A program made the translations under genes and the position numbers. From the NCBI GenBank assembly GCA_963422465.1, contig OY730170.1, forward strand, positions 310,001 to 374,000: a stretch of DNA of 64,000 bases, given 5' to 3'. Every line of letters begins with the position of its first letter. Within the stretch, counting starts at the first letter, position 1. Below, in pieces: positions 1 to 18,965 of this stretch. The stretch comes from Lichina pygmaea. Lineage: Eukaryota; Ascomycota; Lichinomycetes; Lichinales; Lichinaceae. Below the pieces are notes generated by a model. It made no database searches. It was not told the origin of the DNA and was given only the letters and a program-made list of their open reading frames with translations.

Positions 1-2572
1 TCCTGCTGTAAGATTGTTCCTTGGTGTTCATCATCTTCCATGTAGTTTTTTTGTCAGCTTAGTATGTCTGCTCTCCTATTGTCTTGTCCGGGGGTGTACA
101 AGATCTTGAACTTGTGTTGCCCTAGGAGTTCAGCCCATCTGACTTGCCGTCTGTTCAGCTTCTTGGTTGTCGTGAACGTTGTCAGATTCTTGTAGTCTGT
201 AAGTGTCACGGTTCTGGCCCAGTTGCATATCTGGCACAAGCCACACACCTTGCCGGGAAGTCCCATCTGCACTGTTTGCCTGTTTGCTCCGCCGTTGCCT
301 GATCCCCTGCCTATAAGAACTTCTCCTGCTCCCCCAGCTTCTTCTCTTCTTTTCTCTTTTCCTTCCTCGTCTTTCGCCTTGTATATCAATCCAAGTCTCA
401 AGTCTCAAGCCAAGTCAGGTCAAGGTTACCAAATCAGTTAGGCTTGAGTTCTGCTCTGCCATTGCCTTGTCACAGTAAGAATGGTGAGTTCAGAACTGCT
501 TTCCGCATACACTCTCCAGTGTTCGAGTGCGTTGACGACTGCCAGTAGCTCTTTGTCGTGGATATTATAGTTTTGTTCTGCTTGTGACATTTTGCGTGAG
601 TAGTAGGCAACTGGGTGCTATTTGCCATCTGCCTGTTGGCATAGACATGCTCCCACCACTTGGTCTGAAGTGTCTGTTTTGATTTGTGTTGGCTGGCCTG
701 TCTTGAAGTTGAGGAGAACTGGTTCCTTGGCGCAAGCATCCTTGAGCTGTTGGAATACTTTTTGTTATCTCTCTGTCCACCAGTACTCCACGTCCTTCTT
801 TGTGAGTTCTGTCAGTGATGTTGCTGTCTGTGAGTAGTTCTTGATGAACTGTCAGTTGAAGTTGGCAAATCCTAGGAAGACTTGTACTTCCTTGACTGAT
901 GTCAGTGTTGGCCATTGCTGAATCACTTTGACTTTCTCAGAGTCAATCTTGATCTCTTTGATTCCTATGATGTATCCGAGGAATTCAACTTCCAGTTTGT
1001 TGAACTTGTATTTCTTCAGGTTGAGCTTGAGCCCTGCCTTTTGTAGGCATCGTAGAATATCCTTCACATGTTTGGTATGTTCCTGTTGTGTTTTCGAGTA
1101 GACAAGAATATTGTCCAGGTAGGCAATAGCTGTTTGGTCCAGGTGTGCTCTGATAACATTGTTGATCAATGCTTAACATGTTGTTGGTGTGTTTGTGAGT
1201 CCGAATAGCATAACCAGATACTTGTAGTGTCTGTATCAGGTTCTGAAAGCTGTCTTCCATTCTTCTCCTTCTTTCATGTGTATCAGGTTGTATGCTTCTT
1301 TCAAGTCCAGCTTGGTGAAGATTGTAGCTTGGCTGATCCTGTCTCACAATTCGTTCGCATTTGGCAACGGATATCAGTTCTTGATGGTAATGTTGTTGAG
1401 TTTCCTGTAATCCACACAAAGTTGAAGACTTCTGTCTTTCTTTGGTGCAAATAGTATTGGGTATTCTGCTGGTAATTGAGATTCTTGAATGAAACTCTTT
1501 TTCAGGTTTTCCTCCAGGTACTCGTGAAGTACTTGGAGCTTTTTCTCTGATAACTGGTAAATTGGTCCAAATCCTGGCTCCGTCCCTGGTTGTAACTTGA
1601 TCTTATAATCCCAAGGTTGGTGCTTAGGCAACACTGCTGTTGTTGTCTCTTCCTGAAAGAGGTTATCATACCCAGGTCAGTACTTTTCAGAGATCTCCAG
1701 AGAGTTAACAACTTCCTCTCTCTTCATCTCTGACTGTTTGGCCACCTGGTTCTGGGGTGTGCCTGTTGAGGTGGACCTCTTCTCTTGAGAGTTGTCCTTT
1801 CTGTCAGTGAGGTTCCACTAAGAACTCTTTCCCTTATCTGTCCACGTCTTCTACGGCTGGTAACAGGTCTGAGCTGTGTTGTTAGTGCAGTTCCTAAACG
1901 TGAGTACTCCTGTCCTCCAGTTAACAACTGGGTTGTACTTCTTTAGCCAAGGCATCCCCAAATAGATATCCTGAGTGGCCAACTTGACGATATCAAGGTG
2001 GATCCTTTCAGCATGGTGTCCGGTAACTATTTCCATTGGCTGTGTCTTATGGTAGACTAGCTCTGTCTGTCCATTTACTATCATGAGCTGATAGAGCTAC
2101 TGCTTGCGTCTTCTTCCAGTGCTGAGGGTGTTGTAAAGTTGTCTTGAAATGTAGTTCCCACTGGCTCCAGAGTCAACAAGTGTGTATGTCTGTACTGGCA
2201 TGTTGGCGTGTAGTGACACAGGCAATCACAGGTGCTTTGCGTTACTAGGGGTCATGTTGTTGAGCTTCTGATATCACCCCTTGACAAGAGAGTTCAGTCT
2301 TTTCCTGATTGAAGTGTTTTTCCACTGACTGGGTAATGGGTCCAGCCATTCCTATCAGTTCTGAGGAATCTGTTCATGAATTTATCTTGCTGATGCTTGT
2401 CACATCCAGGCTTGAGGCAGTACTGCCAATTGTTGATGTAGCAGTTGTGGTTGTTGCCTTGCTGTAGGAATATGAGGTGTTTGTGCTAATCATGTGTGTG
2501 CCCGGGGAATGTAGTGTGTTGGTGTTTATCCCAGAGATAGATCTCACACACATCCTTCTTGCAATTGACCTA
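1..2572 (-). mobile_element. Element C, left segment (Ty3/gypsy, continues before the window)
   Basis: This is the pol and gag-distal part of a Ty3/gypsy LTR retrotransposon lying on the minus strand. Read on the minus strand from 2572 downwards it gives the gag tail, the aspartic protease, reverse transcriptase and the start of RNase H. Integrase and the 3' LTR lie before position 1. The element resumes at 8794 after the insertion of element A, is interrupted again by the LINE at 9583-14886, and ends with its 5' LTR at 15533-15912. It differs from the A/B family in sequence throughout, so it is a separate family. Confidence 0.85.
54..2250 (-). pseudogene. Element C pol: protease, reverse transcriptase, RNase H start (broken)
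   Basis: The protease active site is seen near 2165-2200 on the minus strand as a VDSGASGNY motif and looks intact. Reverse transcriptase follows in pieces at about 1374-1634 (VPKKD-type and LCVDYRKLNN motifs) and 852-1169, where the catalytic YxDD box reads YLDN because the second Asp is changed. RNase H/connection sequence with a TTKKLNRRQVRWAELL motif lies at 54-401. Stops and shifts separate these pieces, for example TAA where a Gln (CAA) is expected near 1170 and TGA after the FANFN motif near 860. It cannot make a full polyprotein. Confidence 0.8.
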
Positions 2573-3004
2573 TGTTAAAGGCCGGGCCGGGTTCACACAG
2601 AAACTGGTACGGTCTGTTGCTTTGTAGGGCAGATTCTAGACAGGGACTTGGTAGAGGAATAGACAGGTGGGGTAACTCTCCTGTGCTATTGTCTCAGTAC
2701 GATGGATTCATATTGTGTATTGTGTTCAGCCTGGAGAGCTAATCCCTCCGGGCCCTTTGGGGGGTCTTTATACAGATGCCCCAAGGGGGGGGGTCTCCTT
2801 GAGGGGTATCATCCTTTTGCGTGGACAAGCTCCTCGCTTAGCTCCTGCTTGTCCACCGGACAAGCTCCTCGCTTAGCTCCTGCTTGTCCACCGGACAAGC
2901 TCCTCGCTTAGCTCTTGCTTGTCCACCAGATCAGTCGGATGTTGTTCTGTATGACTAACACTCCTCCCTCACTTACCTGGGCTGTTCTGGCCTAGGCCTT
3001 AACA
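2573..3004 (-). repeat. Element A 3' LTR
   Basis: The LTR is 432 bp and has TGTTAAAGGCC/GGCCTTAACA inverted ends. It contains three tandem copies of a 35-bp unit at 2823-2857, 2858-2892 and 2893-2927. Each unit begins GGACAAGC and ends GCTTGTCCACC, so every unit can fold on itself. The other LTR of the same element has two copies. Confidence 0.95.
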
Positions 3005-3089
3005 CTATCCCCTCTCTCCAAGGGTTCTGTCCTCAGATCCTTTTCGTTCCTGCTCCTCTTTTGCCATGAACCAAAGCCAGACAACTTGA

Positions 3090-3638
3090 ACTTGTCGTCG
3101 CAGTTTTCTCTCTTGTTGTATTGGCAAAATAGGCAAGGAATCGAAAATCGCATGTGGTGCTTGTTGTCGCGACCACGCCAAGTGTGTCATGAGCTCTGCG
3201 TCATCTTTTTGTTGTCGGTGTGTTGAGAAGGGTTGTCACTGCGACCTTCATCTCTCGGAATCAGAATGGAAGAAGATGGAGCTTGAGCGCAAGCAGCTCA
3301 AGGCTCAGCTGCGGGAGACTGATGACCAATTGTCAAAGTTGCTTCCCCAGCAGATCCACCTCTGCCGGCAGCTGGGTCGTCTCTCACAGAAGGAGGCTGA
3401 TGCCATCTGTCGTGAGCTGTCAGCCATCAAGGATCAAGAGTCCCTTGATGCTCAGGAACAAGAGGCCCTCCGCGTTATCCGTGAACAGGAGGTCTGTCAG
3501 GCTGCTGCTCCGCTGTCCTTTGAGGACATCTTCTCTTCGGAGGCTTTGGCTTCTCTCAAGCTGTTGTCTCCATCAGACCTGGTCGCTGCGGGTTTGCTTG
3601 GTGGTAATCCACCAGCTTCTGGTTCATCACAGAGCTGA
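3090..3638 (+). CDS. Antisense Zn2Cys6 / coiled-coil ORF carried by element A
   Basis: This open frame runs opposite to pol, between the chromodomain end and the 3' LTR. From 3153 it encodes six Cys in the spacing CX2CX6CX8CX2CX6C, which is exactly the GAL4-type Zn(II)2Cys6 binuclear cluster. A charged stretch rich in Glu/Lys/Leu follows (from SESEWKKMELERKQLKAQ to about 3480) and looks like a coiled coil. The C-terminal third has an LSFEDIF-like segment and ends NPPASGSSQS. The nearest in-frame ATG is at 3066, but TGA at 3087 separates it from the rest; element B has the same ATG and the same TGA, so this may be an ancestral CGA codon, or a spliced leader may be used. The frame is open in both copies although pol is broken in both. 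A DNA-binding regulator role is inference. Confidence 0.6.
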   Translation, partial: TCRRSFLSCCIGKIGKESKIACGACCRDHAKCVMSSASSFCCRCVEKGCHCDLHLSESEWKKMELERKQLKAQLRETDDQLSKLLPQQIHLCRQLGRLSQKEADAICRELSAIKDQESLDAQEQEALRVIREQEVCQAAAPLSFEDIFSSEALASLKLLSPSDLVAAGLLGGNPPASGSSQS

Positions 3639-3639
3639 A

Positions 3640-6600
3640 GTTTTCGGTTGGTTCCCACAAATTCTCCTCTTCATCAAATCCTAACCACTTCACCAGGTAC
3701 TCAGTTTTCCGTCTATTTCTTTGACTATCCAGGATTCTTTCAACATTGTACTCTTCTTCGTCATCCTCAAAGTTCCATTCTGTCTTGATCTCTGCGTCAC
3801 TGGGTACTGGTTCAAGCAGCGAGACGTGGAATACTCAGTGTATCCTTACTTTTCGTGGCAGTCTCAGTCAATAGTTGACCTTCCCAGTGCACTTCTCAAT
3901 TTCGAATAGTCTGATTCGTACATGGTCCAGCTTTTTGCTTGGTCACTTTGAGCACAGGTTTTTTGTTGATAGGTAGACCTTATCCCCCCTTTCCAGGGTT
4001 GGTCTCTTCAACCTTTTGTCGTGTAATCAGCGGGCGGTGGTGTTCTGGGCACAGTTGATTGTTGTTTTCATCATCTTGTGCATAGCAGCAAGTTTGCTAA
4101 CATTGACAATGTTGCCTCCTGCTGTTGCCTGCCATTGGGGGTTTCTTCCGTAGTTCGCAAAGAACAGTGTTGTCCCTGTCACGCTGTGTTGCTGGTTGTT
4201 GTACGCAAACTGGGCTATTGGTAGCAGTTCCACCCAGTTATCCTGCTGGTGGTTGATGTAGTGTTGTAGATACTGCTCTATTGTCTGGTTAGTCCGCTCA
4301 GTTTGTCTGTCGGTTTGTGGGTGGTAGGCTGTTGACATCCTTGTATCAATGCCAAGTTGCCTTGTCCACGTGTTCCAGAATTTCGAGGTGAAGAGTTTGT
4401 CTCGATCTGAGATAATTGTCTTTGGTAGCCCTCGGTGGCTTACCAGCTCTTTGAGTAGGACACTCGCAAGTTTGTTCGCGGTTCCTGACTCTTTCCACAG
4501 GACCAGGTGGGTGTATTTGGTGAGCTTGTCAACAACCACCAAAATGCTATCGTATACCACCTTTGTTGCTGGGTCTGTTGACTTTGGCAACTTGACCACA
4601 AAATCTATCATGATAGTTTCCCATGGTGCCTCGGGTAGGTCTATTTGCTGTGCCTGCCCGTAGGGCTTATGCCTTGATGGTTTGTTCTTCGCGCACTGTT
4701 CGCAGTTGCGGATGAACTCTATCACCTTGCGCTTCATTCTGTCGAAGCGGTAGTTCCTTTGGATTTTCTCCAAGGTTTTATCTTGCCCGGGGTGTCTGTG
4801 CAAAGGCCTGTCATGGTGCCTCTGGATCACCTCCTCTTGTGCTCTTTCTGGCACAATTTCCTTTTTGTTTGCTGTCTTGTGGCCAAGGGTAAGGAGTAGA
4901 CTCTTTGTTTCTGTTGTTGCCAGTTGGGGTTGGGTATAGACCAGGGTTTGTTCTTTTGTTGCTAGGATTGGGTGTTCCTCTGTTGTTTTCTCATCCATCA
5001 GGTCTGGTCGCCTGCTGAGAGTGTCCACTCAAGCATTTTCAGTGCCCTTCTGGTAGAGGATTTGGAAGTTGTATAATGCTAACAACTCTGCCCATCAAAC
5101 TTGTCATCAGTTTAGCTTCTTTGTTGTTGTGAAGTAAGCTAAGTTCTTGTGGTCTGAGTACATGTCTACCGTGTATTTTGCCCCCTCCAAGTAAGGCCTC
5201 CATTCTTGGAATGCGTCAACGATTACTAACAACTCTTTGTTGTGAACATCGTACCTCAGTTCTGGGCCAGAGAACTTTCTCGATCAATACGTGACAGGGT
5301 GTAAGCGGTTGTCGGCGTCTGGTTGACACAAGCAGGATCCCAATGCTTGGTCCGAGGCATCAGTTTCCAGAATGATCCTCTTCTCGGGATCAAATGATGC
5401 CAAAATGGGTGTGGAGATGAATTTATTCTTCAACTCCCGGAAGGCCACTTGTTGGCTCTCCCCCCACCTGAAAGATTTGTTCTTTCTGGTTAACTCTGTC
5501 AAGGCTACTGCTGTTCTTGAGTAGTCCTTGATGAATCATCAGTAGAAGTTTGCAAATCCTAGGAAGGATTGTACTTCTTTGAGGTTTTTGGGTGTTGGCC
5601 AGTCTTGTACTGCTGCTGTCTTTGTGTCGTCCATTCGGATTCCTTCTGTTGTCAGGATCGACCCCAAATATTCCACTTCTTTTGTGTGGAAAACACTCTT
5701 ATCCAGGCGTAACCTCATTCCTGCTTTCTGGAGTGCATGTAGGATCTTCTTGACATACTGTTTATACTCCTCCAAGGTTCCATTGGTGTATACCAAGACA
5801 TCGTTGATATAAGCGGTGACAAATATATCCAGGTATTATCAGAGGACAGTGTTAATAAGTGATTGGAATGTCACCAGTGCATTCGTAAGGCTGAACAGCA
5901 TCACAGTATACTTGTAGTGCCTGTACCTTGTACGAAAGGCTGTCTTCCATTCTTCGCTGTCTTTCATCCTAACCAGGTTGAAAGCACCTTGAATGTTGAA
6001 CTTGGTAAACTATTTGGCTCCTTGGATCCGGTCTTGGATTTCTGATATCAATGGCAGCGGGTAGCAGTTTTTCACTGTAATCATATTTAGCCACTGATAA
6101 TCAACACACAGTTGAAGTTTGCCATCTTTCTTTGGCACAAACAATATCGGGTATCCAGCTGGTGATGTTGAAGGTCTTATGAACTCTTTCACTAGGTTCT
6201 TGTCCAGGTAGTCTCTCAGGGCCTCAAGCTCTTTTGCTGACAGAGCGTAGATAGGGCTGTGTGTGGGTTTTTTTCTGTCTTCCAGCGGAATCTTGTGGTC
6301 CCACTCCTGATGTTCTGGTAGTGTTGTGATCGCTGTTTCTTCGAACATCTCCTGGTATTCTTTATACTCACTTGGCAACTGCGGTGCCTGAGTCTCACCC
6401 ACGGCGTCTTGCGTGGTGCAAAGTTGTTGTGTTTGGGGTTTCATCCAGGCCACACAGGCCTGCCCGCACTGGTGGTATTTCTTCCACTATGTCAGTGAGA
6501 TTTCTTTAATCGTCACCCCTGGTTCTGACGTGACCAGTGTTCTGTCCGGAAAGACTAGTTGCCTTCTTTTCCAGTCAATCCTTGGGTTTTGTTTTTCCAA

Positions 6601-7086
6601 CCACGGAAGTCCCAATATAACTTTGTGTGGTATCTGGACCAAGTTGAATTCCTCTGTTCTGATTGTCATGCCATGGACACTCAGTCTCAGACTCTTGGTC
6701 TCCTTCATCACTTGTCCCTTGTCCTTGGAGAGTGGTGTTCTGTCCACTACCGTCAACTGGTAGGGGTCTTTCTTGCCTTGGACTGGAACCTTGTTTCTTC
6801 TGGCAAAGCTTTCTGACATGAAGTTACCAGTCGCACCAGAGTTGATCATGGCCTTAGCCAACCACCCATTGACTCTGATCTTGATGTGAAAGTGCGGGCT
6901 GCAGGCTGTTGCGTCAAGGCTCAGCTTGACTCCTTCCTCCCGGGGTGTTGTCTTGCCTGCTCTTCCAGCCCCGGTTTTGAAGAGTGCTGCTAGTTTTTTG
7001 AGCCGCCTAGGCCCTGGGCCTGGCGCTCTACTGTGTGTTGTTTGCATTGTGTGGTGGTGTATCGTTCCCCCAGGTCTTGGTTGCAA
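3640..7086 (-). pseudogene. Element A pol: protease, RT, RNase H, integrase, chromodomain (broken)
   Basis: The protease region (6487-7086) has MINSGATGNF where DSGATGNF is expected, so the catalytic Asp has become Asn. Reverse transcriptase covers about 5539-6453; its YxDD box near 5800 reads YIND. Stops include TAG where Trp is expected after IQGAK (near 6010), a TGA-TGA pair after FANFY (near 5535), and TGA at Arg sites in the RNase H/connection region. Integrase is the best preserved part (4027-5028, 333 codons open), with the HHCC zinc site, the DDE residues (IDF, SDRD, QTERTNQTIEQ) and no stop. A chromodomain with YLVKWLGF and NLWEPTENF motifs follows at about 3650-3830, and its end abuts the antisense ORF. 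The polyprotein cannot be made as one chain. Confidence 0.85.
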
Positions 7087-7379
7087 TCATCAGCAATGTC
7101 TCTGACCTGTGTGATGCTGAGGGTATTGTCAACCTATCGTGGCACTTGCATCTCCCCTATTTCTGATAGGGTTGTGTCCTGTCGTCAAAGGACAGGTTTG
7201 TCAGGGACTGGTGGTGGCTGGGCTTCCTTGTCGTCAACCTGTTCCTCCATATAGCCGGTTGTGTCAAACTCGGAGATTAGGTCGTCCTCCCAGTGGATTC
7301 CATCAACCTTCCTTCAGACCTTGTCAAGGTGGTCCAAGGTTTCTTGGAGCATGTTCTCAAGTTTTTCAGTGTGTTGTCA

Positions 7380-8361
7380 GAGGTTGTCCTCCTCTCTGAG
7401 GAGTGCCGCCTCAGGGTGATTGTGGGGCAGTGTGCCTTGGGAGGCCCTCTGGGGCTTCTCCGTCTCCCTGCCTTTCCAGGCACTCGTGGTGTTCAACTGC
7501 TTCCCTTTGCCCTTCTTGTTCTTCTTCTTGCTCCTGCAGTTCACCGCGAGGTGGCCCACTTTCTGACAGTTGTAACACTTCCGTCTCCTTCTTTCGTGGT
7601 TCTGCTGCATTGATTTCCATGGGTACCAAGCTGTAGTTATCTTTGGCAGGTGTTGGCTTTTTCTTCACCCATGGTTTTATCTGCTTGCCTCACTTCTCAA
7701 GCTCTCTCTTGAACTGTCAGTCGTCGATGCGAGCTGCAGTCTTGATCATTTTGTAGAGCTCGGTTGGTCAGTCTCCTCGCATGATGTCATCCTTGACTTG
7801 TTCCTTGAGGCCTTGGTAGAATAGTGCTGTTAGTGCACTGTCTCCCCACTGGGTCCTCACTGCTAGTTGTTGGAACTTCGCCGCGAATTCCGATGCTGAT
7901 CCAGTTTGCCGCAGTGCTTGGAGCTTTCATTCTGTATCCCTTTCCTCGTCAAGGATCCCAAACATCTTTCTCATGGCTGTCTTAAAGGTTTTCAATCTTC
8001 CCATGACCTGTCAGGTATTGTCTTCTTGCTTCTTGGGGTCTGCCTGATTGTCTAGGTAATCCCTTAAGTAGATGTTGAACCAAGCGAAGGCTGGTCCTTC
8101 CAGGTAGGAGGCTGCAAATAGCACCTTCTCCTGGTCTGTCGGGAACTGGGCTGTGTTGAACCTATAGTAGAGCTCCAGTTGTGAGAAGAACAACTCCAGT
8201 CCTCCCCTGGATCCATCGTACCTCTTCGGGGCACCTACCTTCAAGGGCTTCAGGGGTAGGTTAACAATAGGTGCCGCCTGGACAGCCTGGGCCTGAGCCG
8301 CCTGAGCAGCCTGGGCTTGGGCCACCTGAGAAGGGGTAGGGCTTCGTGGATCCACCATCAT
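7380..8361 (-). pseudogene. Element A gag (broken)
   Basis: Gag starts at an ATG at 8361, 35 bp after the 5' LTR. The first 116 codons are open, with Ala/Gln repeats and then a capsid-like part (APKRYDGSRGGLELFF, FAASYLEGPAFAWF). Several stops follow, the first at 8011. A CCHC zinc knuckle (CYNCQKVGHLAVNC) with a basic tail is seen at about 7510-7575. The part before the zinc knuckle is readable only across stops or frame changes. Confidence 0.8.
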
Positions 8362-8396
8362 ATCGAGTCAGTGTCCTGTATGTTAGAGGCTGAAAC

Positions 8397-8793
8397 TGTT
8401 AAAGGCCAGGCTGGGTTCACACAGAAACTGGTACAGTCTGTTGCTTTGTAGGGTGGATTCTAGACAGGGACTTGGTAGAGGAATAGACAGGTGGGGTAAC
8501 TCTTCTGTGCTATTGTCTCAGTACGATGGATTTGTATTGTGTATTGTGTTCAGCCTGGAGAGCTAATTCCTCCGGGCCCTTTGGGGGGTCTTTATACAGA
8601 TGCCCCAAGGGGGGGGGTCTCCTCGAGGGGTATCATCCTTTTGCGTGGACGAGCTCCTCGCTTAGCTCCTGCTCGTCCACCGGACGAGCTCCTCGCTTAG
8701 CTCTTGCTTGTCCACCGGATCGGTCGGATGTTGTTCTGTATGACTAACACTCCTCCCTCGCTTACCTGGGCTGTTCCGGCCTAGGCCTTAACA
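8397..8793 (-). repeat. Element A 5' LTR
   Basis: The LTR is 397 bp with the same inverted ends as the 3' LTR. It carries two copies of the 35-bp unit (8647-8681, 8682-8716). Differences from the 3' LTR are almost all C/T or G/A. Confidence 0.95.
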
Positions 8794-9582
8794 ACCTAAT
8801 GTTTGTGGCAGGTGGTGCGGTAGGGTAAATGTCCTCTGTACCTTTGTAGTTATTCGTGGTAGGTGTAGTAGTGCTTTGTGCAAAACCTCTACTGTAGTTT
8901 GCTGTGCCGTAGGTTTTGTGGGTCCATGCTGTAAGCATAGCTTCCTTGTAGTATTTCTTCTTTGATAGACGTGGGTTCATCTCAGTCTCCATCAGAGGTG
9001 GTTAAGGGCTCCTGTCCCTTGTCCTGACCTGTCTGTTCTGGTAGGTCCTTGCCTCCTGATGTTGCCAGTTGGTGGGCTACTTCCAATGTCTGATCGTAGT
9101 TGTCCTATTGTTCAAGAGATAGCTGAGCCTCTCCTGGTAGATCCTCTGGCTTGATGACATTCCAGTCTCCATCAAGTGTATTTAGTTGCTGTCAGTGCAC
9201 CTTGTTCTTTGAACAACAGTCTCTCACCATGTGGCCTAGCTTACCACAGGCATAGCACTTCAGTGCTTTCCCCTTCTTGTTGTTCCTTCCTTTTGTGAAC
9301 CTTCCCTTGTGGTGGACTACATCCAGTTCCATGGGTGCATAGCTATATAGGTCATGTGGCGGTGTCTTGTTAGGCAGCTTGTAGTGGTTGCTTACATGCT
9401 ATGTGGGGTGGCTGTATCCTCCGTCATGGCATTTCTCCATCGCTTGCTGGAATAGTTTGTCATCGATGTTGATTACTTGTGTGATGAGCTCGTCCAGTGT
9501 GTTGACCGCTTATCTGTCAAAGGTGATTTCATCCTTCATGTTTTCCTTGAGTCCATGTCAGTACATGACTATCAGGGCATCA
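8794..9582 (-). mobile_element. Element C, middle segment (gag)
   Basis: This is gag of element C between the element A insertion and the LINE insertion. The minus strand at about 9186-9256 encodes a CCHC zinc knuckle (CYACGKLGHMVRDC), with capsid-like sequence further right. In-frame stops are present, for example directly after the zinc-knuckle tail. Its last 12 bases (9571-9582) are the left copy of the LINE target-site duplication. Confidence 0.85.
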
Positions 9583-10078
9583 GAAAACTCTTCCCAGAAC
9601 CACGTTCTTCAAGGACCATCAATTTTGACAAACACCACAGTTTGTCATATGTTCTGGAAAACAGCCGAGTTCCTCTCTGAAACCACCCAAACCTTAAGGT
9701 GAAAACCCATCACCTTTGAGAATCACACCTGTTTGTCAAAAGTTGTGATCTTGAATCCACGATCTTCTTCAACAACCAGCAATCTACCCACAACCAGAGA
9801 GAGAGTCTCAGGATAAGAGGAATGGTTAGAGTCTGACTGACTCTGGAGCTAGCAGAGTCTTTGGCTCAAGGAAAGTCTAGATAGGGGGTCTGGTCCCTAG
9901 TCTAGGTTAATACTTCTAGCTTTGCCCAGAGCTTAGTTGGAAAAAGCTGCCCAGGAAAGTCTAGTCTTGGGGATTGGTCCCAGGACTAGATTATTACTGC
10001 TGGGAAACCAGGTGACTCTTCTTTCTGGCAGTACTCTGCAGACAGGAAACACCCAACCAGTGCCAAACAATCTCTAAC

Positions 10079-11500
10079 ATGGCTCCCAAGAAGAAAAAAC
10101 CCACCTTTTCAGAAAGTAACACCAGAGCTACACCAGCTATACTCTCCCAACCAGCTCCCAGTCTGGCTAGCACCCAGTCCAGCTCTCCTACCCCTCAACC
10201 AGCTCCCCAGAGTGACTACAAACTAGTAGACTCCTGGATCAAAACTCAACCAGTCCCAGAATCTATTCTGAAAAGCTGGGAAAATATCAAAAAGAACTCC
10301 TTCCCTACAGAAGCCCAGTCTAGCTCCACTGGCCTCACCAACAGAATCTTCCAGGAGCTGGAGAATATCAACAAGCGGCTGGACAAACAAGAAGCCAAGC
10401 CATCATATGCCCAGGCTGTCCAAAAATCTATTCCAGCACAAATCCCTCTACCTGCAAGAATTCTCAAAGAAGTTCTTGTACATCCTGGTATCCAGCCACC
10501 TGACATGGCTAATAGAACTCACATCCAGCTTTTCCAGGCTCTTCAAGACAGACTACCCAGTCCCTACAACAAGCAGGTCAGAGCAGTAAGGAAACTTCCT
10601 TCAGGGGATATCCTTATTAACACAGAAAGCCAAGAGACTAAAGTCTTCCTAGAGAAAAACCCTGCCTGGGTATCAGCTATCTTCACAAAGAAAGCAACCA
10701 TCCAGCTCAAGAGATTTCCAGTTCTGATCCATGGAGTCAGAACAGAAGATATCCAACCTGAAGACCTGGAGAAAACCCGCCAGATAATCCAGAACAGCAA
10801 CCCATCTCTGAGCAAGCAAATCACCATCCTGAGAGCCTACTGGTCTAAGAAGGCTATAGCTCAAAAGAAGCCAGTTACCTCTCTCCACCTGGATCTGGCT
10901 ACCCCTGAACAAGCCAATCTTTTGATTGAGAGTGGGCTAGTGCTGGGGCACAGGATGCATGAAGCAGAACCTTTTCTGGCAGACACAGTTATTGCACAAT
11001 GTTTCAAGTGCTTTGGCTATGGGCACCAAGCACACTTCTGCAAGAACAAAGCTGTGTGTGGTGCCTGTGGAGGCCAGCATGAAAGGAGAGCCTGCCAAGT
11101 TCCTGAACAGCTTCTCAAGCCAAAATGCTGCAACTGCAGAGGAGCTCACCCAGCCTGGGCCAGTGTCTGTCCAGTACACCAGGAAGCAGCCAAGAAGGCA
11201 AGAGAAGCATGGAACACACGCCCAGGAAAATATGAGATCCCAACAGCTACCTCTGTTCCAGCTCTACAACCCCCCCCAGTTATGTCTTTCCTTCTCTCTC
11301 AGTCTCTACCAGGGGGAAAAAACATAAAACAGCTGAGCCAAGCAGAAGCTCAGAGAGACTCAGAGGTGCACTCCCAGAAGTGCAAATTCTTTCTTCAAGA
11401 TCAGCCAACTCTGGAGGAAAGCTACCAGCTAACTTGTTCAAGATCTTTGATGCTGAGATGTCTGCATGAAAGACACAAAGCTGACACTTCTCCAGTATAA
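10079..11500 (+). CDS. LINE ORF1, zinc-knuckle nucleic-acid-binding protein
   Basis: The product is 473 aa, from the ATG at 10079. The N-terminal 60 residues are Ser/Pro/Gln-rich, and the middle resembles the RNA-binding part of Tad-type ORF1 proteins. Three Cys/His knuckles follow at about residues 305-375: CFKCFGYGHQAHFC, CGACGGQHERRAC and CNCRGAHPAWASVC. Such proteins coat the element RNA and are needed for retrotransposition. The last 35 bases overlap the start of ORF2 in another frame, so ORF2 is probably translated by reinitiation. No stop or shift is seen. Confidence 0.92.
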   Translation: MAPKKKKPTFSESNTRATPAILSQPAPSLASTQSSSPTPQPAPQSDYKLVDSWIKTQPVPESILKSWENIKKNSFPTEAQSSSTGLTNRIFQELENINKRLDKQEAKPSYAQAVQKSIPAQIPLPARILKEVLVHPGIQPPDMANRTHIQLFQALQDRLPSPYNKQVRAVRKLPSGDILINTESQETKVFLEKNPAWVSAIFTKKATIQLKRFPVLIHGVRTEDIQPEDLEKTRQIIQNSNPSLSKQITILRAYWSKKAIAQKKPVTSLHLDLATPEQANLLIESGLVLGHRMHEAEPFLADTVIAQCFKCFGYGHQAHFCKNKAVCGACGGQHERRACQVPEQLLKPKCCNCRGAHPAWASVCPVHQEAAKKAREAWNTRPGKYEIPTATSVPALQPPPVMSFLLSQSLPGGKNIKQLSQAEAQRDSEVHSQKCKFFLQDQPTLEESYQLTCSRSLMLRCLHERHKADTSPV

Positions 11501-14500
11501 TGTGCAAAAAAGCCAATCAGTCCAAGAGCTACTGCTAGCAACCTCAGCTCTTCAAGAGGTGGACATTATTGCACTTCAAGAGCCCTGGAAAAACCCTCAC
11601 CTAGAAACAAGCACTTCAACTGTTTTCTCTTCCTTTCTTCCTCTCTACTGTTCAGAGATTGGCAGAACACTTTTTCTTATTAATAAAAATCTGAAACTCT
11701 CTTCTCTTCATCCTACCTTCTGGAATAAAGACTTTGTTTCTCTTGAAATCTACTTGGAAAACTCTTCTACTTCTCTTTGGGTACATAATCTCTACTTCAC
11801 CCCATCAAGTCAAGAAAACTACACAGAGGCATCAGAAGCTCTTCTCTGTTTACTCCAAAATGCTTTACAAGAACAAGGACAACATATTCTTCTCACAGAC
11901 TCAAATCTTCACCACCCAGACTGGTCAAAGAAAAGAAGACTGTACTCTGAGACTGCAAACAAGTTTCAAGACCTAATGAAAGATTTAAATCTGGATTTAG
12001 CTATTGCACCTTTCACCCCTACCAGAGCAAGATCTCTTTCTGAAAAACCATGTTCTTCTATTGATCTGTCTTTTATTTCTTCTTCTCTTTCTAACTCTCT
12101 GATTTTCTCTAAAGTGGCTCTTCAGTTCTTTCATGGGTCTGACCACAGACCTGTACTAACCTGCCTGGACCTGGATCCTCCAAGGAAAATCTGGAAACCA
12201 GAAAGAAACTGGAGAACACTGGACTCAAACCTTGCAAGAGTAGAGTGTGAGAAGCTACACCTGCCCTTCCACTTCCAAGACAAATATGAAGTGGATGAGT
12301 ACTTGGAGTATCTTGACAACTTTCTCCAAGAAATAGCAAGCAAATCCACACAGCTCCAGAAGCAATCTGGCCACTCAGTTCCCTGGTGGAATCAAGAGAT
12401 CCAAAACAAGGTTAAAGAGGAAAGAAGAGTAAGAAGAAAAGTGCAAAAAAGGCAAGCAAGTCAAGAGGAACTTGAGCAAGCAACTAAGCTCAAGAAAAAG
12501 GCAGTCAGAGATGGAAAACAGAACACTTTCAGACACCAAATCCATGAACTGGCCAGCTCTTCAAAGTTCTGGAAGCTTGCAAAGTGGGGAAAGTCCAAAG
12601 CCAACAAGACTCCTGATCTTCCTCTGGTTCCTGACCTGGAAACACAAGAAGGAATAGCCAAAACCTTTGAGGAAAAGACTAAAGCCTTCTCACAACAGTT
12701 CTTTCCAAAAGCTCTAGTTCCAGAACCAGGCTCAGAAAGCTCCCAGACTATCTCTGAGATACAGCTCTCCCAGGAGGTAACATGTGAAGAAGTGGAGCAA
12801 ATTCTGGCCAAGAAGAAACCTTTCACAGCAGGAGGGAGAGATAAGCTGCCAAATGGATTTCTGAGAGCTCTGGGGCCTAGGTTCTGCCAAGCTCTAGCTA
12901 TTCTGACTTCAACATGCTGGAAACTGGAGTACTTCCCTGAAAGATTTAAGAGTGCAAAAACAGTCTGCTTGAGGAAACCTGGCAAGGGAACCTACAATCA
13001 AGCTAAAGCCTGGCGCCCTATAGCTCTGCTAAACACAACAGGCAAGCTGATGGAAGCTATTGCTGCAGCCAGACTAAGCAAGATAGCAGAAGAAGCTGGA
13101 CTATTGCCAGATATCCAGATGGGCTTTAGGAAAGGAAGATCCACAGAAGCAGCACTTTTCCTTCTAACCTCCCAAGTGGAAAAAGTCTGGAAGGAAGGCA
13201 TGGTTGCATCCCTACTCTCACTGGATATCTCAGGAGCCTATGACAGAGTTCTCCCCAAGATACTACAGCAAATTCTGAAAAGAAAAGGAATACCTGCCTG
13301 GCTAGCTTCCTGGATCTACTCCTTCTGTGATAAGCGCTCTACCACTCTTGTCTTTGATGATTCTGAGTCTTATTCTATTCCTATTCATTGTGGAGTTCCT
13401 CAAGATTCTCCATTATCCCCTATTCTTTTTCTATTCTACATTTCTGAATTGCATGAGACTGTGCATACTCCCTCTTCTGGTGTATCTGCCCTGGGGTTTG
13501 CAGATGATACAAATCTGCTTGCTTTTAGTCACTCCTTGAAAAGTAACCTTCTGAAGTTAAAGAACACACACCACAAATGTCTATCCTGGGCTGCAAGACA
13601 TGGAATAGTCTTCTCACCTGAGAAATATGAAATACTTCATTTTTCCAGAAGAAGATCAGACAATCTTCAGCTCAAGCTCAGACTGGGGAATGTGATTCTC
13701 AAACCAAAAGAAGAAGTGCGAGTACTTGGAGTGTACCTAGATGCAAAGCTCCACTGGCACAAACACCAGAGGATTATTCTTCAAAAAGCACAGAAAGCAC
13801 TCTCTTCTCTTTCTAGAACTTCCTATTCTACTTGGAGCTTTCCAGTTCACACATCATGTCTGGTGTACACTGCTATACTGAGATCTCTACTGAGCTATGC
13901 AGTGGGGATCTGGTTTAACCCTCTAAGAAAATCCTCCAATATCTCTTCTCTTGTTTCATTTCAAAACAGATGCCTAAGACTTATTGGGGGTGCCTTCAAA
14001 GCCACTCCTTCTTTTCTATTAGAGAGTGAGCTTTTTCTTCTACCTCTAGACCTATACTTTAAATTTCGCACTGCCTGTTTTCTTTCTTCTATTCAAAACT
14101 CCCCTCTCAAATACTTTCTTGACAGTATCTTTTCCACTATTTCCAGCTATGCCTCTCTCTTGAAGAAACCTTTAAAGGAATCCTCAACTATCTCTCCTAA
14201 GTGGAAATTCACTTGGTTAAGTCAAATAACTACTAACCAGGCTAGTTCAAAGAAAGAACTACAAAAGCTCTTTACTAAAGAGTGGGAAGACCAATGGGAA
14301 GAGAAGAAAAGAAGAAGCTATCCAGGCTGGCAGACTTTCTGTCAAAAGCCACACAAAAACAATCTGAAGCTCTACAAAGAGTTACAGAAAGCTGAGGCAA
14401 GTCTGCTACTGCAAATCAGGACTGGAAGAATTGGTCTGGCAAGTTTTCTTTTCAGAGCTGGAGCTCCTGACTTCCCTACCCCACTATGTGTGTGTGGCCA

Positions 14501-14708
14501 AGCAGAGGAAACTGCAAAACATATCACCTCTTCATGCTCTCTTTATTCAAGACAAAGACAACAAGTCTCTTTTAATCCCCAAGACTTCACCACTATTATT
14601 TCAAACCCAGAGCTACTACAGAAGTTCTTGTACTGGTTTATGTCTTTGAAAAGACTAAACCAGTTTAATCTAGCTTTCAAACTCCACTATTCCCAATCCA
14701 ATACCTAG
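11466..14708 (+). CDS. LINE ORF2, endonuclease and reverse transcriptase
   Basis: The product is 1080 aa, from the ATG at 11466. Residues 1-230 form an APE-type endonuclease, with YNVQKS, ALQEPW, LLTDSNLHHPDW, SSIDLSF and GSDHRPV motifs. Reverse transcriptase spans about 460-770, with the catalytic SLDISGAYDRV and FADDTNLLAF boxes. A Cys/His cluster (CVCGQAEETAKHITSSC) lies near the C-terminus. I see no RNase H domain, which many Tad-clade elements have. The enzyme nicks the target and primes cDNA synthesis there. All catalytic motifs look intact, so the copy could be active if it is transcribed. Confidence 0.95.
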   Translation: MKDTKLTLLQYNVQKSQSVQELLLATSALQEVDIIALQEPWKNPHLETSTSTVFSSFLPLYCSEIGRTLFLINKNLKLSSLHPTFWNKDFVSLEIYLENSSTSLWVHNLYFTPSSQENYTEASEALLCLLQNALQEQGQHILLTDSNLHHPDWSKKRRLYSETANKFQDLMKDLNLDLAIAPFTPTRARSLSEKPCSSIDLSFISSSLSNSLIFSKVALQFFHGSDHRPVLTCLDLDPPRKIWKPERNWRTLDSNLARVECEKLHLPFHFQDKYEVDEYLEYLDNFLQEIASKSTQLQKQSGHSVPWWNQEIQNKVKEERRVRRKVQKRQASQEELEQATKLKKKAVRDGKQNTFRHQIHELASSSKFWKLAKWGKSKANKTPDLPLVPDLETQEGIAKTFEEKTKAFSQQFFPKALVPEPGSESSQTISEIQLSQEVTCEEVEQILAKKKPFTAGGRDKLPNGFLRALGPRFCQALAILTSTCWKLEYFPERFKSAKTVCLRKPGKGTYNQAKAWRPIALLNTTGKLMEAIAAARLSKIAEEAGLLPDIQMGFRKGRSTEAALFLLTSQVEKVWKEGMVASLLSLDISGAYDRVLPKILQQILKRKGIPAWLASWIYSFCDKRSTTLVFDDSESYSIPIHCGVPQDSPLSPILFLFYISELHETVHTPSSGVSALGFADDTNLLAFSHSLKSNLLKLKNTHHKCLSWAARHGIVFSPEKYEILHFSRRRSDNLQLKLRLGNVILKPKEEVRVLGVYLDAKLHWHKHQRIILQKAQKALSSLSRTSYSTWSFPVHTSCLVYTAILRSLLSYAVGIWFNPLRKSSNISSLVSFQNRCLRLIGGAFKATPSFLLESELFLLPLDLYFKFRTACFLSSIQNSPLKYFLDSIFSTISSYASLLKKPLKESSTISPKWKFTWLSQITTNQASSKKELQKLFTKEWEDQWEEKKRRSYPGWQTFCQKPHKNNLKLYKELQKAEASLLLQIRTGRIGLASFLFRAGAPDFPTPLCVCGQAEETAKHITSSCSLYSRQRQQVSFNPQDFTTIISNPELLQKFLYWFMSLKRLNQFNLAFKLHYSQSNT

Positions 14709-14886
14709 ATTCTCTTCTCCTACCAGAAACTTCAAGATTCCTTTTGTTACATTCCCTAGTCACACCCTGCCTTCAGTTTTTATCCCTTCAAAGGTTTTCT
14801 GAAGGAGTTCACTATTAGCTAGAAGATCTGCATGACTGTAAAGCTACTACCAGTGTAAGAATCAAATAAAATAAAATAAAATAAAA

Positions 14887-15532
14887 ATCAGGGCATCATC
14901 ATCCCAATCAGTCAGTACTGAGTATTGTTTGAACTGCGTGGTGTACTCTGCAGCTGAGCGTTGTTGTTTGATGTGCTGGATCATTTGTATAGCCACTTTG
15001 TCTTTGTTAGATAGTCCAAGGATCCTTTTGATCTTGTCCTTGAATCACGTCCATTTTGTCATCCATTCCGACATGCCATCGTGGTCTCTGTTTCCTGAGA
15101 GATGTTTGTTGATGTAGGGCTTGATCCATCAATAAGTATTGCCTCTCATGTAAGTGGTTGCAAAGAGGGGCCACTTCTCCTTAGGCAGCTTTGTCTCTGG
15201 TTAGAATTGAAAGTAGACTTGGAGTTGCATGAGCCAGTCATTGACCTTGTTTCTTTCACTGTAGAACAGGTCTGGCTTGGCGACACTAATCTTTCCATCT
15301 GGGAATCTGGGGTTGGTTACTCCTGAGGTACTTATCCTTGAGGGTCTTCAAAGTGTTGCAGTCTGTACTGTACTGTCCTATCCGAGTATAGGATTAGGGC
15401 GAGAGGTGGAAGGCAGGTTGGTTCTTGCAGGAGAGGAGTGTCAAGGAGTGCGAAGGGGTTTGGTGGAACGTGGTGGTGGTGACACCTGATCAATAGTTTC
15501 GCACAAAAGGATTGTATTGAAGTAGATCTAGT
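14887..15532 (-). mobile_element. Element C, right segment (start of gag and leader)
   Basis: This segment continues element C after the LINE. Joined across the LINE, minus-strand gag reads on (DWDDDALIVMY, then a TGA). Gag N-terminal sequence, broken by stops, covers about 14900-15400. A short leader reaches the LTR at 15533. Confidence 0.8.
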
Positions 15533-15912
15533 TGTCTGGATCACAACATGAGTTGAAGACAATTATTCCATAAGGGAACTATCACCAGACTATATAGTGC
15601 TGGCCTGTCAAGACAATCAAGATTGTCTTGACAGTCTTGATGTCAAGACAGGTGAGATTGTCTTGACAGTCCCACCATGTTATGCACCCTGCGTCAAGAC
15701 TGGTGAGATTGTCTTGATGCTTCCTGCATCCTGCATCAAGACTGGTGAGATTGTCTCGATGCTTCATGCATGCTGTGTCAAGCTGCCTGTGTGTGTCTCG
15801 ACAGTCACGTGACCCCTTGTTGGTTGGTCACTTGACTTCCATGGTGTCCTCTTGCCTGGCCCGTGGCCTGATTGCTTATAAATAAGTGGCTCCTATCCCA
15901 GGGGTCATAACA
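15533..15912 (-). repeat. Element C 5' LTR
   Basis: On the minus strand this 380-bp LTR starts TGTTATGACC and ends CCAGACA. A TATA-like box (TTATTTATAAG) lies about 25-45 bp in from its outer edge. Inside are tandem repeats of about 42 bp built on TCAAGACTGGTGAGATTG (best copies about 15692-15775), with related CAAGAC/GTCTTG inverted pieces to their left. The next 5 bp after 15912 are CTGCC, where element B sequence resumes; the matching CTGCC should occur left of the window. Confidence 0.75.
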
Positions 15913-18387
15913 CTGCCATTGATATTGGAAATCCAAGACCAGATCCAAGGAGCTAAATAGTTTACCAAGTTCAATATTCAAGGCACTTTCAACCTGGTTA
16001 GGATGAAAGATGGTGAAGAATGGAAGACAGCCTTTTGTACAAGGTACAGGCATTACAAGTATACAGTGATGCTATTCAGCCTTATGAATGCACTGGCAAC
16101 ATTCCAATCACTTATTAACACTGTCCTCCGACAATACCTGGACATATTTGTCACCACCTACATTGACGACATCTTGGTATACACCAATGGAACCTTGGAG
16201 AAGCATAAACAGCATGTCAAGAAGATTCTACATGCACTCCAGAAAGCAGGCATGAGGTTACACCTTGATAAAAGTGTTTTCCACACAAAAGAAGTGGAAT
16301 ATTTAGGGTTGATCCTAACAACAGAAGGAATCTGAATAGACAACACAAAGACAGCAGCAGTACAAGACTGGCCAACACCCAAAAACCTCAAAGAAGTACA
16401 ATCCTTCCTAGGATTTGCAAACTTCTACTGATGATTCATCAAGGACTACTCAAGAACAGCAGTAATCTTGACAGAGTTAACCAGAAAGAACAAATCTTTC
16501 AGGTGGGAGGAGAGCCAACAAACAGTCTTCCAGGAGTTGAAGAACAAATTCATCTCCACACCTATTTTAGTATCATTTGACTCTGAGAAAAGGATCATTT
16601 TGGAGACTGATGCCTCAGACCAAGCATTGGGATCCTGCTTGTGTCAACCAGACACTGACAACCGCTTACACCCTGTCACATACTGATCAAGAAAGTTCTC
16701 TGGCCCAGAACTGAGGTACAATGTTCACAATAAAGAGCTGTTAGCAATCATTGATGTATTCCAAGAATAGAGGCCTTACTTGGAGAGGGTAAAATACACG
16801 ATAGATGTGTACTCAGACCACAAGAACTTAGCTTACTTCACAACAATGAAGAAGCTAAACTGACAACAAGTTTGATGGGCAGAGTTGTTGGCATCATACA
16901 ACTTTCAAATCCTCTACTGGAAGGGTACTGAAAATACTTGAGCAGACACACTCAGCAGGTGACCAGACCTGATGGACAAGAAAACAACAGAGGAACACCC
17001 AATCCTAGCGACAAAAGGATAAACCCTGGTCTATGCCCAACCCCAACTGGTAACAACTGAAACAAAAGGTCCACTCCTTACCCTTGGCCACAAGGTGGCA
17101 AACAAAAAGGAAATTGTGCCAGAAAGAGCACAAGAGGAGGTGATCTGGAGGCATTATGACAGGCCTTTGCACAGACACCCCGGACAAGATAAAACCTTGG
17201 AGAAGATCCAAAGGAACTACCACTTTGACAGAATGAAGCGCAAGATGATAGAGTTCATCCGCAACTGTGAACAGTGTGCAAAGAACAAACCATCAAGACA
17301 TAAGCCCTACAGGCAGGCACAGCAAATAGACCTACCTGAGGCACCATGGGAAACTATCACGATGGATTTCATAGTCAAGTTGCCAAAGTCGACAGACTTA
17401 GCAACAAAGTTGGTATACGATAGCATTTTGGTGGTTGTTGACAAGCTCACCAAATACACCCACCTGGTCCTGTGGAAAGAATCAGAAACCACGAACAAAC
17501 TTGCGAGTGTCCTACTCAAAGAGTTAGTAAGCCACTAAGGGCTACCAAAAACAATCATCTCAGATCAAGACAAACTCTTCACCTTGAAATTCTGGAATAT
17601 ATAGACAAGGTAACTAGGCATTGATACAAAGATGTCAACAGCCTACCATCCACAAACTGACAGACAAACTGAGTGGACAAACCAGACGATGGAGCAGTAT
17701 CTACAACACTACGTCAGCCACCAGCAGGATAACTGGGTGGAACTGCTACCAATAGCCCAGTTTGCGTACAACAACCGGCAACATAGTGTGACAGGGACAA
17801 CACTGTTCTTTGTGAACTATGGAAGAAACCCCTGATGGCAGGCAACAGCAGAAGGCAATATTGTTGATATTAACAAACTCGCTGCTATGCACAAGAGGAT
17901 GAAAACAACAATCAACCGTGCCCAGAACACCACTGCCCGCTGATCACACAACAAAAGGTTGAAGGGACCAACCCTGGAAAGAGGGGATAAGGTCTACCTA
18001 TCAACAAAAAACCTGCGCTTGAAGTGACTGAGCAAAAAGCTGGACCACGTACAAATCAGACCATTCGAAATTGAGAAGTGCACTGGGGAAGTCAACTATC
18101 AACTGAGACTACCACGAAAAGTAAGGATGCACCGAGTATTCCACATCTCACTGCTCGAACCAGCACCCAGTGACACAGAGATTGAGACAGAATAGAACTT
18201 TGAGGACGACAAAGAAGAGTACAATGTCAAAAGGATCCTGGATAGTCGAAGAAACAGACAGAAAACTGAGTACCTGGTGAAGTGGTTAGGGTTTGACGAA
18301 GAAGAAAATTTGTGGGAACCAACCGAGAACTTCAGCCCTGTGATGAACCAGAAGCTGGTGGATTACCACCAAGCAAACCCGCAGTGA
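15913..18387 (+). pseudogene. Element B pol: RT, RNase H, integrase, chromodomain (broken)
   Basis: Reverse transcriptase starts mid-domain at 15913 and keeps an intact YIDD box (near 16160), unlike element A. Stops appear as TAG after the IQGAK-like motif (15957), TGA-TAG near 16332, TGA-TGA after FANFY (near 16430) and TGA at Arg sites near 16680, 16860-16880 and 16940. Integrase (about 17090-17940) retains the HHCC site and catalytic motifs but has several stops. The chromodomain (about 18180-18385; YLVKWLGF, NLWEPTENF) is preceded by TAG where Trp is expected. Many stops sit at the same codons as in A. Confidence 0.85.
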
Positions 18388-18880
18388 CCAGGTCTGACAG
18401 GGACAACAGCTCGAGAGAAGCCAAAGTCTCTGAAGAGAAGACATCCTCAAAGGACAGCGGAGTGGCAGCCTGACTGGCCTCCTGTTCGCGGATAATGTGG
18501 AGGGCCTCTTGTTCCTGAGCATCGAGGGACTCTTGATCCTTGATAGCTGACAGCTCACAACAGATGGCATCAGCCTTCTTCTGGGAGAGACAACCCAGCT
18601 GCCGGCGGAGGCAGATCTGCCGGGGAAGTAACTTTAATAATTGGTCGTCAGTCTCTCGCAGCTGAGCCTTGAGCTGCTCACGCTCAAGTTCCATCTTCTT
18701 CCATTCTGATTCTGAGAGATGAAGGTCACAGTAACAACCCTTCTTGACACACTGATGACAAAAAGACGATGCGGAACTCACGACACACTTAGTGTGGTCG
18801 TGACGACAAGCACCGCATGTGATTTTCAATTCCTTGCCTATTTTACCAATACAACAAGAAAGAGAACTGCGACAACAAGT
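18332..18880 (-). CDS. Antisense Zn2Cys6 / coiled-coil ORF carried by element B
   Basis: This is the counterpart of the element A antisense frame and is about 80-85% identical by eye. The six Cys are kept in the same CX2CX6CX8CX2CX6C spacing (CGAC...KC...FCHQC...C). The charged segment (SESEWKKMELEREQLKAQ) and the C-terminal NPPASGSSQG follow. The frame is open from 18880 to the stop at 18332. An upstream in-frame ATG at 18904 is separated from it by TGA at 18881-18883, exactly as in element A. The C-terminal end overlaps the chromodomain codons of pol by about 55 bp on the other strand. Expression and function are unknown. Confidence 0.6.
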   Translation of the reverse strand, partial: TCCRSSLSCCIGKIGKELKITCGACRHDHTKCVVSSASSFCHQCVKKGCYCDLHLSESEWKKMELEREQLKAQLRETDDQLLKLLPRQICLRRQLGCLSQKKADAICCELSAIKDQESLDAQEQEALHIIREQEASQAATPLSFEDVFSSETLASLELLSLSDLVTAGLLGGNPPASGSSQG

Positions 18881-18965
18881 TCAAGTTGTCTGATCTTGGT
18901 TCATGACAAAAGAGGAGCAGGAAGAAAAAGGATCTGGGGACAGAACTCTTGGAGGGAGGGGATAG

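What the first reader, a model, noticed from the sequence alone, without database searches (positions are those of the whole stretch)
3066..3638. Retrotransposon with an antisense Zn2Cys6 coiled-coil ORF (element A copy)
Opposite to pol and just inside the 3' LTR lies a frame whose six Cys have exactly the GAL4 spacing CX2CX6CX8CX2CX6C, followed by a charged helical stretch. Its pol partner is full of stops, yet this frame is open for about 180 codons. A mobile element that carries its own regulator-like protein on the other strand could control its host, its LTR or its target choice. The repeated hairpin units of the LTR would be a natural binding site. The motif and openness are seen; function and binding site are inference.
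Basis: partly seen in the sequence, partly recalled or inferred. Interest (0 to 1): 0.85.

Follow-up and report, generated by a model that had tools for sequence, protein, structure and literature searches.

The report
Antisense zinc-cluster gene in fungal retrotransposons
Hundreds of copies of fungal LTR retrotransposons carry, on the strand opposite to their usual genes, a small gene for a zinc-cluster, coiled-coil protein that natural selection has preserved, and which probably regulates the element's own promoter.

Summary
Frame 3066-3638 (+) has CX2CX6CX8CX2CX6C followed by a long helix. It lies just inside the 3' LTR of a degraded Ty3/gypsy chromovirus. Most of it lies beyond pol: the pol stop (TAA 3475-3477) is in all 70 copies read, so the overlap is a 164-nt tail-to-tail one. 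TGA 3087 is a decayed CGA, and the window copy itself is dead. In 70 copies the six cysteines are kept in 66-69. Shared non-CpG variants give omega 0.33-0.38 (P 0.0003-0.002); singletons give 0.98. A second element family in the same genome has a comparable antisense gene (CX2CX6CX11CX2CX6C plus an 83-residue helix) in two diverged versions, B and B2. Between these dN/dS is 0.10 in this frame and 1.0-1.9 in the others, apart from the mirror frame. B and B2 are 93-98% identical in gag-pol but differ in one 3' block: chromodomain end, antisense gene and U3. An antisense TATA box sits at the same place in both. So this is a real, selected antisense gene, probably transcribed from the 3' LTR. That it is a DNA-binding regulator of its own U3 is inference. 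Antisense accessory ORFs here are known (Grande, RIRE2, Retand; brtn in fungal Boty). The zinc-cluster identity, the selection test and the gene+U3 cassette are what I could not find described.

The parts
3066..3638 (+). Antisense ORF (190 codons with start and TGA 3087; 182 open codons 3090-3635). In this copy broken at its 8th codon by TGA 3087
3153..3242 (+). Zn2Cys6-like cluster CX2CX6CX8CX2CX6C; six Cys kept in 66-69 of 70 copies
3258..3503 (+). Predicted long helices after the cluster (AlphaFold2 on family copies, helices 65-104, 108-124, 129-146; low overall confidence, pLDDT 87-90 in the first helix)
3475..3638 (.). Tail-to-tail overlap of antisense ORF and pol 3' end (pol stop TAA 3475-3477, 70/70 copies)
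3475..8361 (-). Degraded gag-pol of element A: gag, CCHC, aspartic protease, RT, RNase H, integrase, chromodomain
3640..3790 (-). Chromodomain at the pol C-terminus (PF00385, E 2.1e-14)
2573..3004 (-). 3' LTR of element A; the antisense ORF starts 62 nt inside its inner edge
8397..8793 (-). 5' LTR of element A
2568..2572 (.). Target-site duplication ACCTA (partner at 8794-8798)
   Evidence: read
8794..8798 (.). Target-site duplication ACCTA
   Evidence: read
2823..2927 (.). Three tandem 35-nt U3 units with inverted arms GGACAAGC..16..GCTTGTCC
3005..3065 (+). CT-rich stretch between LTR and ATG (contains the polypurine tract of the sense strand); no TATA box found here in family A
   Evidence: read
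18335..18880 (-). Same antisense ORF, 182 open codons, in a second, 5'-truncated A copy (15913-19414, pol on +)

Best explanation
The frame is the remains of a real protein-coding accessory gene of a chromovirus, lying antisense between pol and the 3' LTR. Shown: a Cys6 cluster with Zn2Cys6 spacing plus a long helix; purifying selection in source elements; a comparable gene in two diverged versions of a second family; an antisense TATA box in that family's LTR; linkage of gene and U3 as one block. Inferred: the 3' LTR drives an antisense mRNA, and the protein dimerises through its helix and binds DNA through the zinc cluster. Its most likely targets are the palindromic tandem units of its own U3, so that it regulates (activates or limits) sense transcription of the element, in the manner of retroviral antisense regulators.
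For: Copies: 280 candidate places for A, 150 scored, most with no stop in the frame. Selection in A, pol-free part 3090-3474: variants in 3 or more copies give N 17 (27.4 expected) to S 27 (16.6), omega 0.38, P 0.0003; in 38 copies picked by integrase DNA rather than by the ORF, omega 0.33, P 0.0019; singletons 0.98 in all 70 copies, 0.63 (n.s.) in the 38. B vs B2: dN/dS 0.10 in frame; other frames 1.23, 1.58, 1.00, 1.90, mirror frame 0.23; adjoining pol 0.16. Motif chance about 1e-5. Same site, architecture and tail-to-tail overlap (92 nt in B; 164 nt in A). Antisense TATA at the same place: TATATAAAG in 30/30 B copies, TATAAAT in 11 of 12 B2 copies (the twelfth lacks the LTR), in a U3 about 45% alike. 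B and B2: gag-pol 93-98%, antisense ORF 66-71%, U3 about 45%, LTR end (4834-5080) about 94%. AlphaFold2: single helix 55-137 in B, pLDDT mostly above 85.
Against: No transcript data. Zn_clus (PF00172) is matched only below cut-off (4 of 19 copies, best E 0.0041), and B not at all. Foldseek finds no significant fold match; GAL4 and PUT3 appear only at E 5-7. The gene-U3 link follows in part from geometry: one template switch in the chromodomain would move both. U3 palindromes are not significant singly, and B2 units hold no CGG. A and B proteins are not clearly homologous by profile (23%). Family A has no antisense TATA.
Confidence: 0.5

Rival explanations
1. Selected accessory protein with a role other than transcription: nucleic-acid chaperone, nuclear import of the pre-integration complex, integration-site or chromatin choice, working with the adjoining chromodomain.
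For: Purifying selection does not say which function. Chromodomain end and antisense gene diverge together. Plant aORF-3R proteins are nuclear, and this role has been proposed for them (PMC7264820).
Against: The gene lies next to, and diverges with, U3, the transcriptional control region; the cysteine spacing is that of fungal transcription factors rather than of CCHC knuckles.
Confidence: 0.25
2. The antisense RNA, not the protein, is what matters: it pairs with genomic RNA and limits copy number through RNAi or interference (as antisense RNAs do in some other elements). The frame is incidental.
For: Antisense core promoter in B/B2 LTRs; antisense transcripts of other elements act as RNA (PMC7264820).
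Against: Amino-acid level conservation: dN/dS 0.10 in this frame only, with saturated synonymous change. An RNA function would not protect codon position 2 (position-2 deficit P 8.7e-5). Both roles may coexist.
Confidence: 0.07
3. A host gene captured antisense and carried as a passenger.
For: The genome has about 34 Zn_clus matches over the cut-off and a separate DUF3716 family as possible donors.
Against: Two element families carry such a gene in the same site, in hundreds of copies; selection persists across saturated synonymous divergence; no host relative above threshold was found.
Confidence: 0.05
4. Chance open frame kept open by codon composition, with no function.
For: CpG decay makes few stops in this frame, so the window copy's openness alone is weak evidence.
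Against:: selection, six-cysteine retention, second family and diverged versions.
Confidence: 0.02

Closest known systems
brtn of Boty-like Ty3/gypsy elements in Botrytis cinerea (Zhao et al. 2011 Virology 417:248; not held, cited in PMC7264820, PMC8365987, PMC4227169)
   Same: Fungal gag-pol element ending in a chromodomain, with an additional antisense gene between pol and the 3' LTR (PMC4227169, PMC7264820)
   Different: I could not read its protein, so whether it has a Zn2Cys6-type cluster is unknown; no selection or LTR-linkage analysis of it was available to me
Plant antisense accessory ORFs (aORF-3R): maize Grande gene23, rice RIRE2, Silene Retand, PvRetro13
   Same: [quoted passage not shown] Grande gene23 encodes a nuclear protein and has its own promoter (PMC7264820)
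   Different: No zinc cluster reported; the review states no clear similarity to known proteins; plant hosts
HTLV-1 HBZ
   Same: Works alike in the proposed model: antisense transcript from the 3' LTR encoding a dimeric DNA-binding-type regulator of viral transcription (PMC3736048, PMC4776189)
   Different: bZIP domain, retrovirus, no sequence relation; for the present case neither transcription nor regulation is shown
Fungal Zn2Cys6 transcription factors (GAL4, PUT3; Pfam PF00172)
   Same: Cysteine spacing and a following coiled-coil-like helix
   Different: Below the Pfam cut-off, no proline before the fourth cysteine, very long helix, no further regulator domains, encoded antisense in a retrotransposon
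DUF3716 (PF12511)
   Same: Fungal Cys-rich domain; two B copies match weakly (E 0.034)
   Different: Below cut-off; the genome's own DUF3716 genes are a separate low-copy set, with no element pol seen beside those inspected apart from one weak match

Membership tests
Ty3/gypsy chromovirus (the carrier element) | gag-pol with AP, RT, integrase and C-terminal chromodomain between LTRs with target-site duplication | tested here: met
   Integrase_H2C2, rve, RVP_2; Chromo E 2.1e-14 (A) and 8.7e-18 (B); RT read; LTRs and TSD ACCTA
aORF-3R (antisense accessory ORF between pol and 3' LTR) | antisense frame between pol and the 3' LTR | tested here: met
aORF-3R (antisense accessory ORF between pol and 3' LTR) | present in most copies with conservation like the element's own proteins | tested here: met
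   dN/dS 0.10 against 0.16 for adjoining pol
Fungal Zn2Cys6 (PF00172) | CX2CX6CX5-12CX2CX6-8C | tested here: met
   A X8 loop, B and B2 X11 loop
Fungal Zn2Cys6 (PF00172) | score above Pfam gathering cut-off | tested here: not met
   best E 0.0041 in 4 of 19 A copies, 8.5 bits against 21 for L020; none for B or B2
Fungal Zn2Cys6 (PF00172) | two zinc ions bound by six cysteines; CGG-type DNA recognition | not testable with these tools
   needs purified protein
Fungal Zn2Cys6 (PF00172) | GAL4-like fold of the cluster | tested here: inconclusive
   cluster modelled at low confidence; PUT3 and GAL4 listed only at E 5-7
brtn of Boty | sequence homology to BRTN | not testable with these tools
   BRTN sequence and its paper not held
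DUF3716 (PF12511) | score above cut-off | tested here: not met
   E 0.034 in 2 of 13 B copies
HBZ-type antisense regulator | antisense transcript starting in or near the 3' LTR | tested here: inconclusive
   antisense TATA box at the same place in B and B2 LTRs, none in A; no RNA data
HBZ-type antisense regulator | bZIP domain | tested here: not met
   no bZIP match in Pfam scans

The most novel reading that the evidence does not exclude
These chromoviruses encode their own LTR-driven antisense zinc-cluster transcription factor. Regulator and cognate U3 operators form one exchangeable specificity cassette, so an element family can keep its gag-pol and swap its regulatory identity by one template switch, escaping cross-regulation by resident families.
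Probability: 0.3. Interest if true: 0.8.

Novelty: new variant of a known kind. Interest (0 to 1): 0.62.

Why it matters
The function of antisense accessory ORFs in LTR retrotransposons is an open question; the review read here says their roles are not determined and that no clear similarity to known proteins has been described (PMC7264820). Here one has a recognisable DNA-binding-type architecture, quantified purifying selection, an antisense promoter element and natural swaps of gene plus U3. That makes the regulator hypothesis directly testable with an LTR reporter and the two natural B/B2 cassettes. It would be a transposon analogue of HBZ in fungi.

Tried and rejected
Chance ORF (rejected). 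Alternative code or read-through at TGA 3087: rejected, the codon is CGA/CAA/TGT in other copies. First omega test used 3090-3554, which still overlapped pol; redone on 3090-3474 after the true pol stop was found. Domesticated copy at L133/L142 with a non-LTR upstream: pol lies right behind it, so it is a truncated or rearranged element. DUF3716 genes as the same system: one weak pol match only among the eight loci inspected (L107), not followed. Host Zn_clus genes: none coincides with an A or B copy. Structural neighbours: Foldseek and VIA-align gave only long-helix RBCC matches of KAP1 (Z 5.5, rmsd 13.4 A, 138 aligned), which I do not interpret. Profile comparison of A and B proteins: 23% and 17.8% probability, misregistered, so common origin of the two proteins rests on site and architecture only. 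18S search failed; the organism was not identified. Plasmid collection: no match. Literature: no paper in the library ties Zn2Cys6 to retrotransposon antisense ORFs, but subscription papers are mostly absent.

Full report
What is there. The window lies at G000:C2:310001-374000 of a 32.5-Mb assembly in 8 contigs. Element A occupies 2573-8793 on the minus strand: LTRs 2573-3004 and 8397-8793, target-site duplication ACCTA. It is a Ty3/gypsy chromovirus (integrase and protease matches; chromodomain E 2.1e-14; reading frames). On the plus strand, 62 nt inside the inner edge of the 3' LTR, begins the frame 3066-3638.

Check of the claim. The motif CX2CX6CX8CX2CX6C is present (Cys codons 3153, 3162, 3183, 3210, 3219, 3240). 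In less decayed copies a pattern of this class appears in 1 of 100,000 shuffles. The six cysteines are kept in 66-69 of 70 copies, while most of the window copy's other cysteines (3117, 3165, 3213, 3234, 3363, 3408) are Arg or His elsewhere. TGA 3087 is a decayed CGA. Polymorphism in the families is dominated by C-to-T type changes at CpG, then CpA. This explains why pol is full of stops while this frame mostly exchanges Arg for Cys or His: openness of the window copy is not itself evidence of selection.

Relation to pol. The apparent pol stop at 3556 is also a decayed CGA/CAA; TAA at 3475-3477 is present in 70 of 70 copies. The two genes converge with a 164-nt tail-to-tail overlap, and 3066-3474 is free of pol.

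Selection in family A. 280 candidate places were found and 150 scored; most have no stop in the frame. I read 70 copies, including 38 chosen by integrase DNA so as not to select on the frame. CpG columns were left out and each event was reassigned at random to sites of the same base change and neighbour. In 3090-3474, variants shared by 3 or more copies give omega 0.38 (P 0.0003, 70 copies) or 0.33 (P 0.0019, 38 copies). Singletons, which arose after insertion, give 0.98 in the 70 copies and 0.63 (P 0.14) in the 38. The pattern is that of a gene selected in source elements and decaying freely in dead copies. An earlier run over 3090-3554 agrees, but 3478-3554 overlaps pol.

A second family. 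Left of the window a different chromovirus, B, carries an antisense frame in the same position (L031:4410-4132), with CX2CX6CX11CX2CX6C and a predicted 83-residue helix. 490 candidate places were found. Two of 25 integrase-picked B copies turned out to carry a strongly diverged version, B2. Of 150 scored matches to the B2 protein, 26 have no stop over all 166 codons (my count). Between B and B2 in the pol-free part, dN is 0.225 and dS 2.3 (saturated), dN/dS 0.10; the other frames give 1.23, 1.58, 1.00, 1.90, and the minus frame that shares third positions 0.23; the short adjoining piece of pol gives 0.16. This is the strongest single result: the protein sequence is conserved while synonymous sites are saturated.

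The 3' cassette. Along one B2 element (L143) against a B copy (L031), gag-pol is 93-98% identical apart from one 150-nt bin containing an indel. Identity then falls to about 85% in the chromodomain end, 66-71% in the antisense gene and about 45% in U3, and returns to about 94% in the LTR end at L031:4834-5080. Antisense gene and U3 are therefore inherited as one block. One template switch in the chromodomain region would produce this; since both lie at the 3' end of the genomic RNA, physical linkage alone could explain it. It is consistent with, but does not prove, co-adaptation.

Antisense promoter. In ORF direction, B has TATATAAAG about 72 nt before the ATG in 30 of 30 copies. B2 has TATAAAT at the matching place in 11 of 12 copies read; the twelfth, L133, lacks the LTR. 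The surrounding U3 is poorly conserved. Family A has no TATA there but a CT-rich stretch. No RNA data were available.

U3 units. All three U3s carry tandem units with inverted arms: A GGACGAGC-16-GCTCGTCC, B GTGAGC-12-GCTCAC, B2 GTCTCGA-18-TCGAGAC. Against shuffles each is weak (P 0.115, 0.155, 0.035). They are candidate operators for a dimer, no more.

Families. Pfam Zn_clus is reached only below cut-off in A (best E 0.0041), and DUF3716 weakly in B (E 0.034). I therefore call the domain Zn2Cys6-like by spacing and do not file it in PF00172. A and B proteins share site, architecture and cysteine layout, but a profile comparison does not establish homology.

Known relatives. Antisense ORFs between pol and the 3' LTR are established in plants and in the fungal element Boty (PMC7264820), where the gene is called brtn. 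The brtn paper is not held, so whether BRTN has this cluster is open; if it has, novelty drops. HBZ of HTLV-1 is the best functional analogy.

Mechanism. Most likely an LTR-driven antisense mRNA encodes a dimeric zinc-cluster protein that acts on the element's own U3. Shown: gene, selection, linkage to U3, antisense TATA in B/B2. Inferred: transcription, zinc, dimer, DNA binding, target, sign of regulation. My probability is 0.5 for a DNA-binding regulator of the element, 0.25 for another accessory role in the element's life cycle, and above 0.9 for a selected protein-coding gene.

Limits. 

Noticed in passing
window 1-19414: Nested insertions: a B/B2-type element on the minus strand (5' LTR about 15354-15880, further parts 8794-9577 and 1-2570) is split by element A (2573-8793) and by a LINE-like element (ORFs 10079-11500 and 11466-14708, endonuclease and RT matches).
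   Followed up: partly
window 205-475: About 270 nt interrupts the B pol alignment (matches resume at 200 and 475); looks like an LTR-like or other small insertion.
   Followed up: no
L143 against L031: Elements B and B2 are mosaics: near-identical gag-pol and LTR end but a diverged 3' block, a natural module swap between retrotransposon families.
   Followed up: yes
L001-L141, families A and B: Copies decay mainly by C-to-T type change at CpG, then CpA, on both strands, as in CpG-directed RIP or methylation decay.
   Followed up: partly
L104, L106, L107, L108: Repeated, degraded DUF3716-type coding sequences with nearly the same N-terminus (MRRFLT..); L107 also has a gag-like frame at 2-904. 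Possibly another mobile family with a Cys-rich protein.
   Followed up: partly
L133/L142 (C1:2424768): A B2 antisense ORF, open, whose upstream LTR is replaced by unrelated sequence while pol remains; truncated or rearranged copy.
   Followed up: partly
window 2823-2927 and L031:5819-5960: The 35-nt U3 unit of A varies in copy number between LTRs (three in the window's 3' LTR, two in its 5' LTR, four in the A LTR of L031 as read in the sequence).
   Followed up: no
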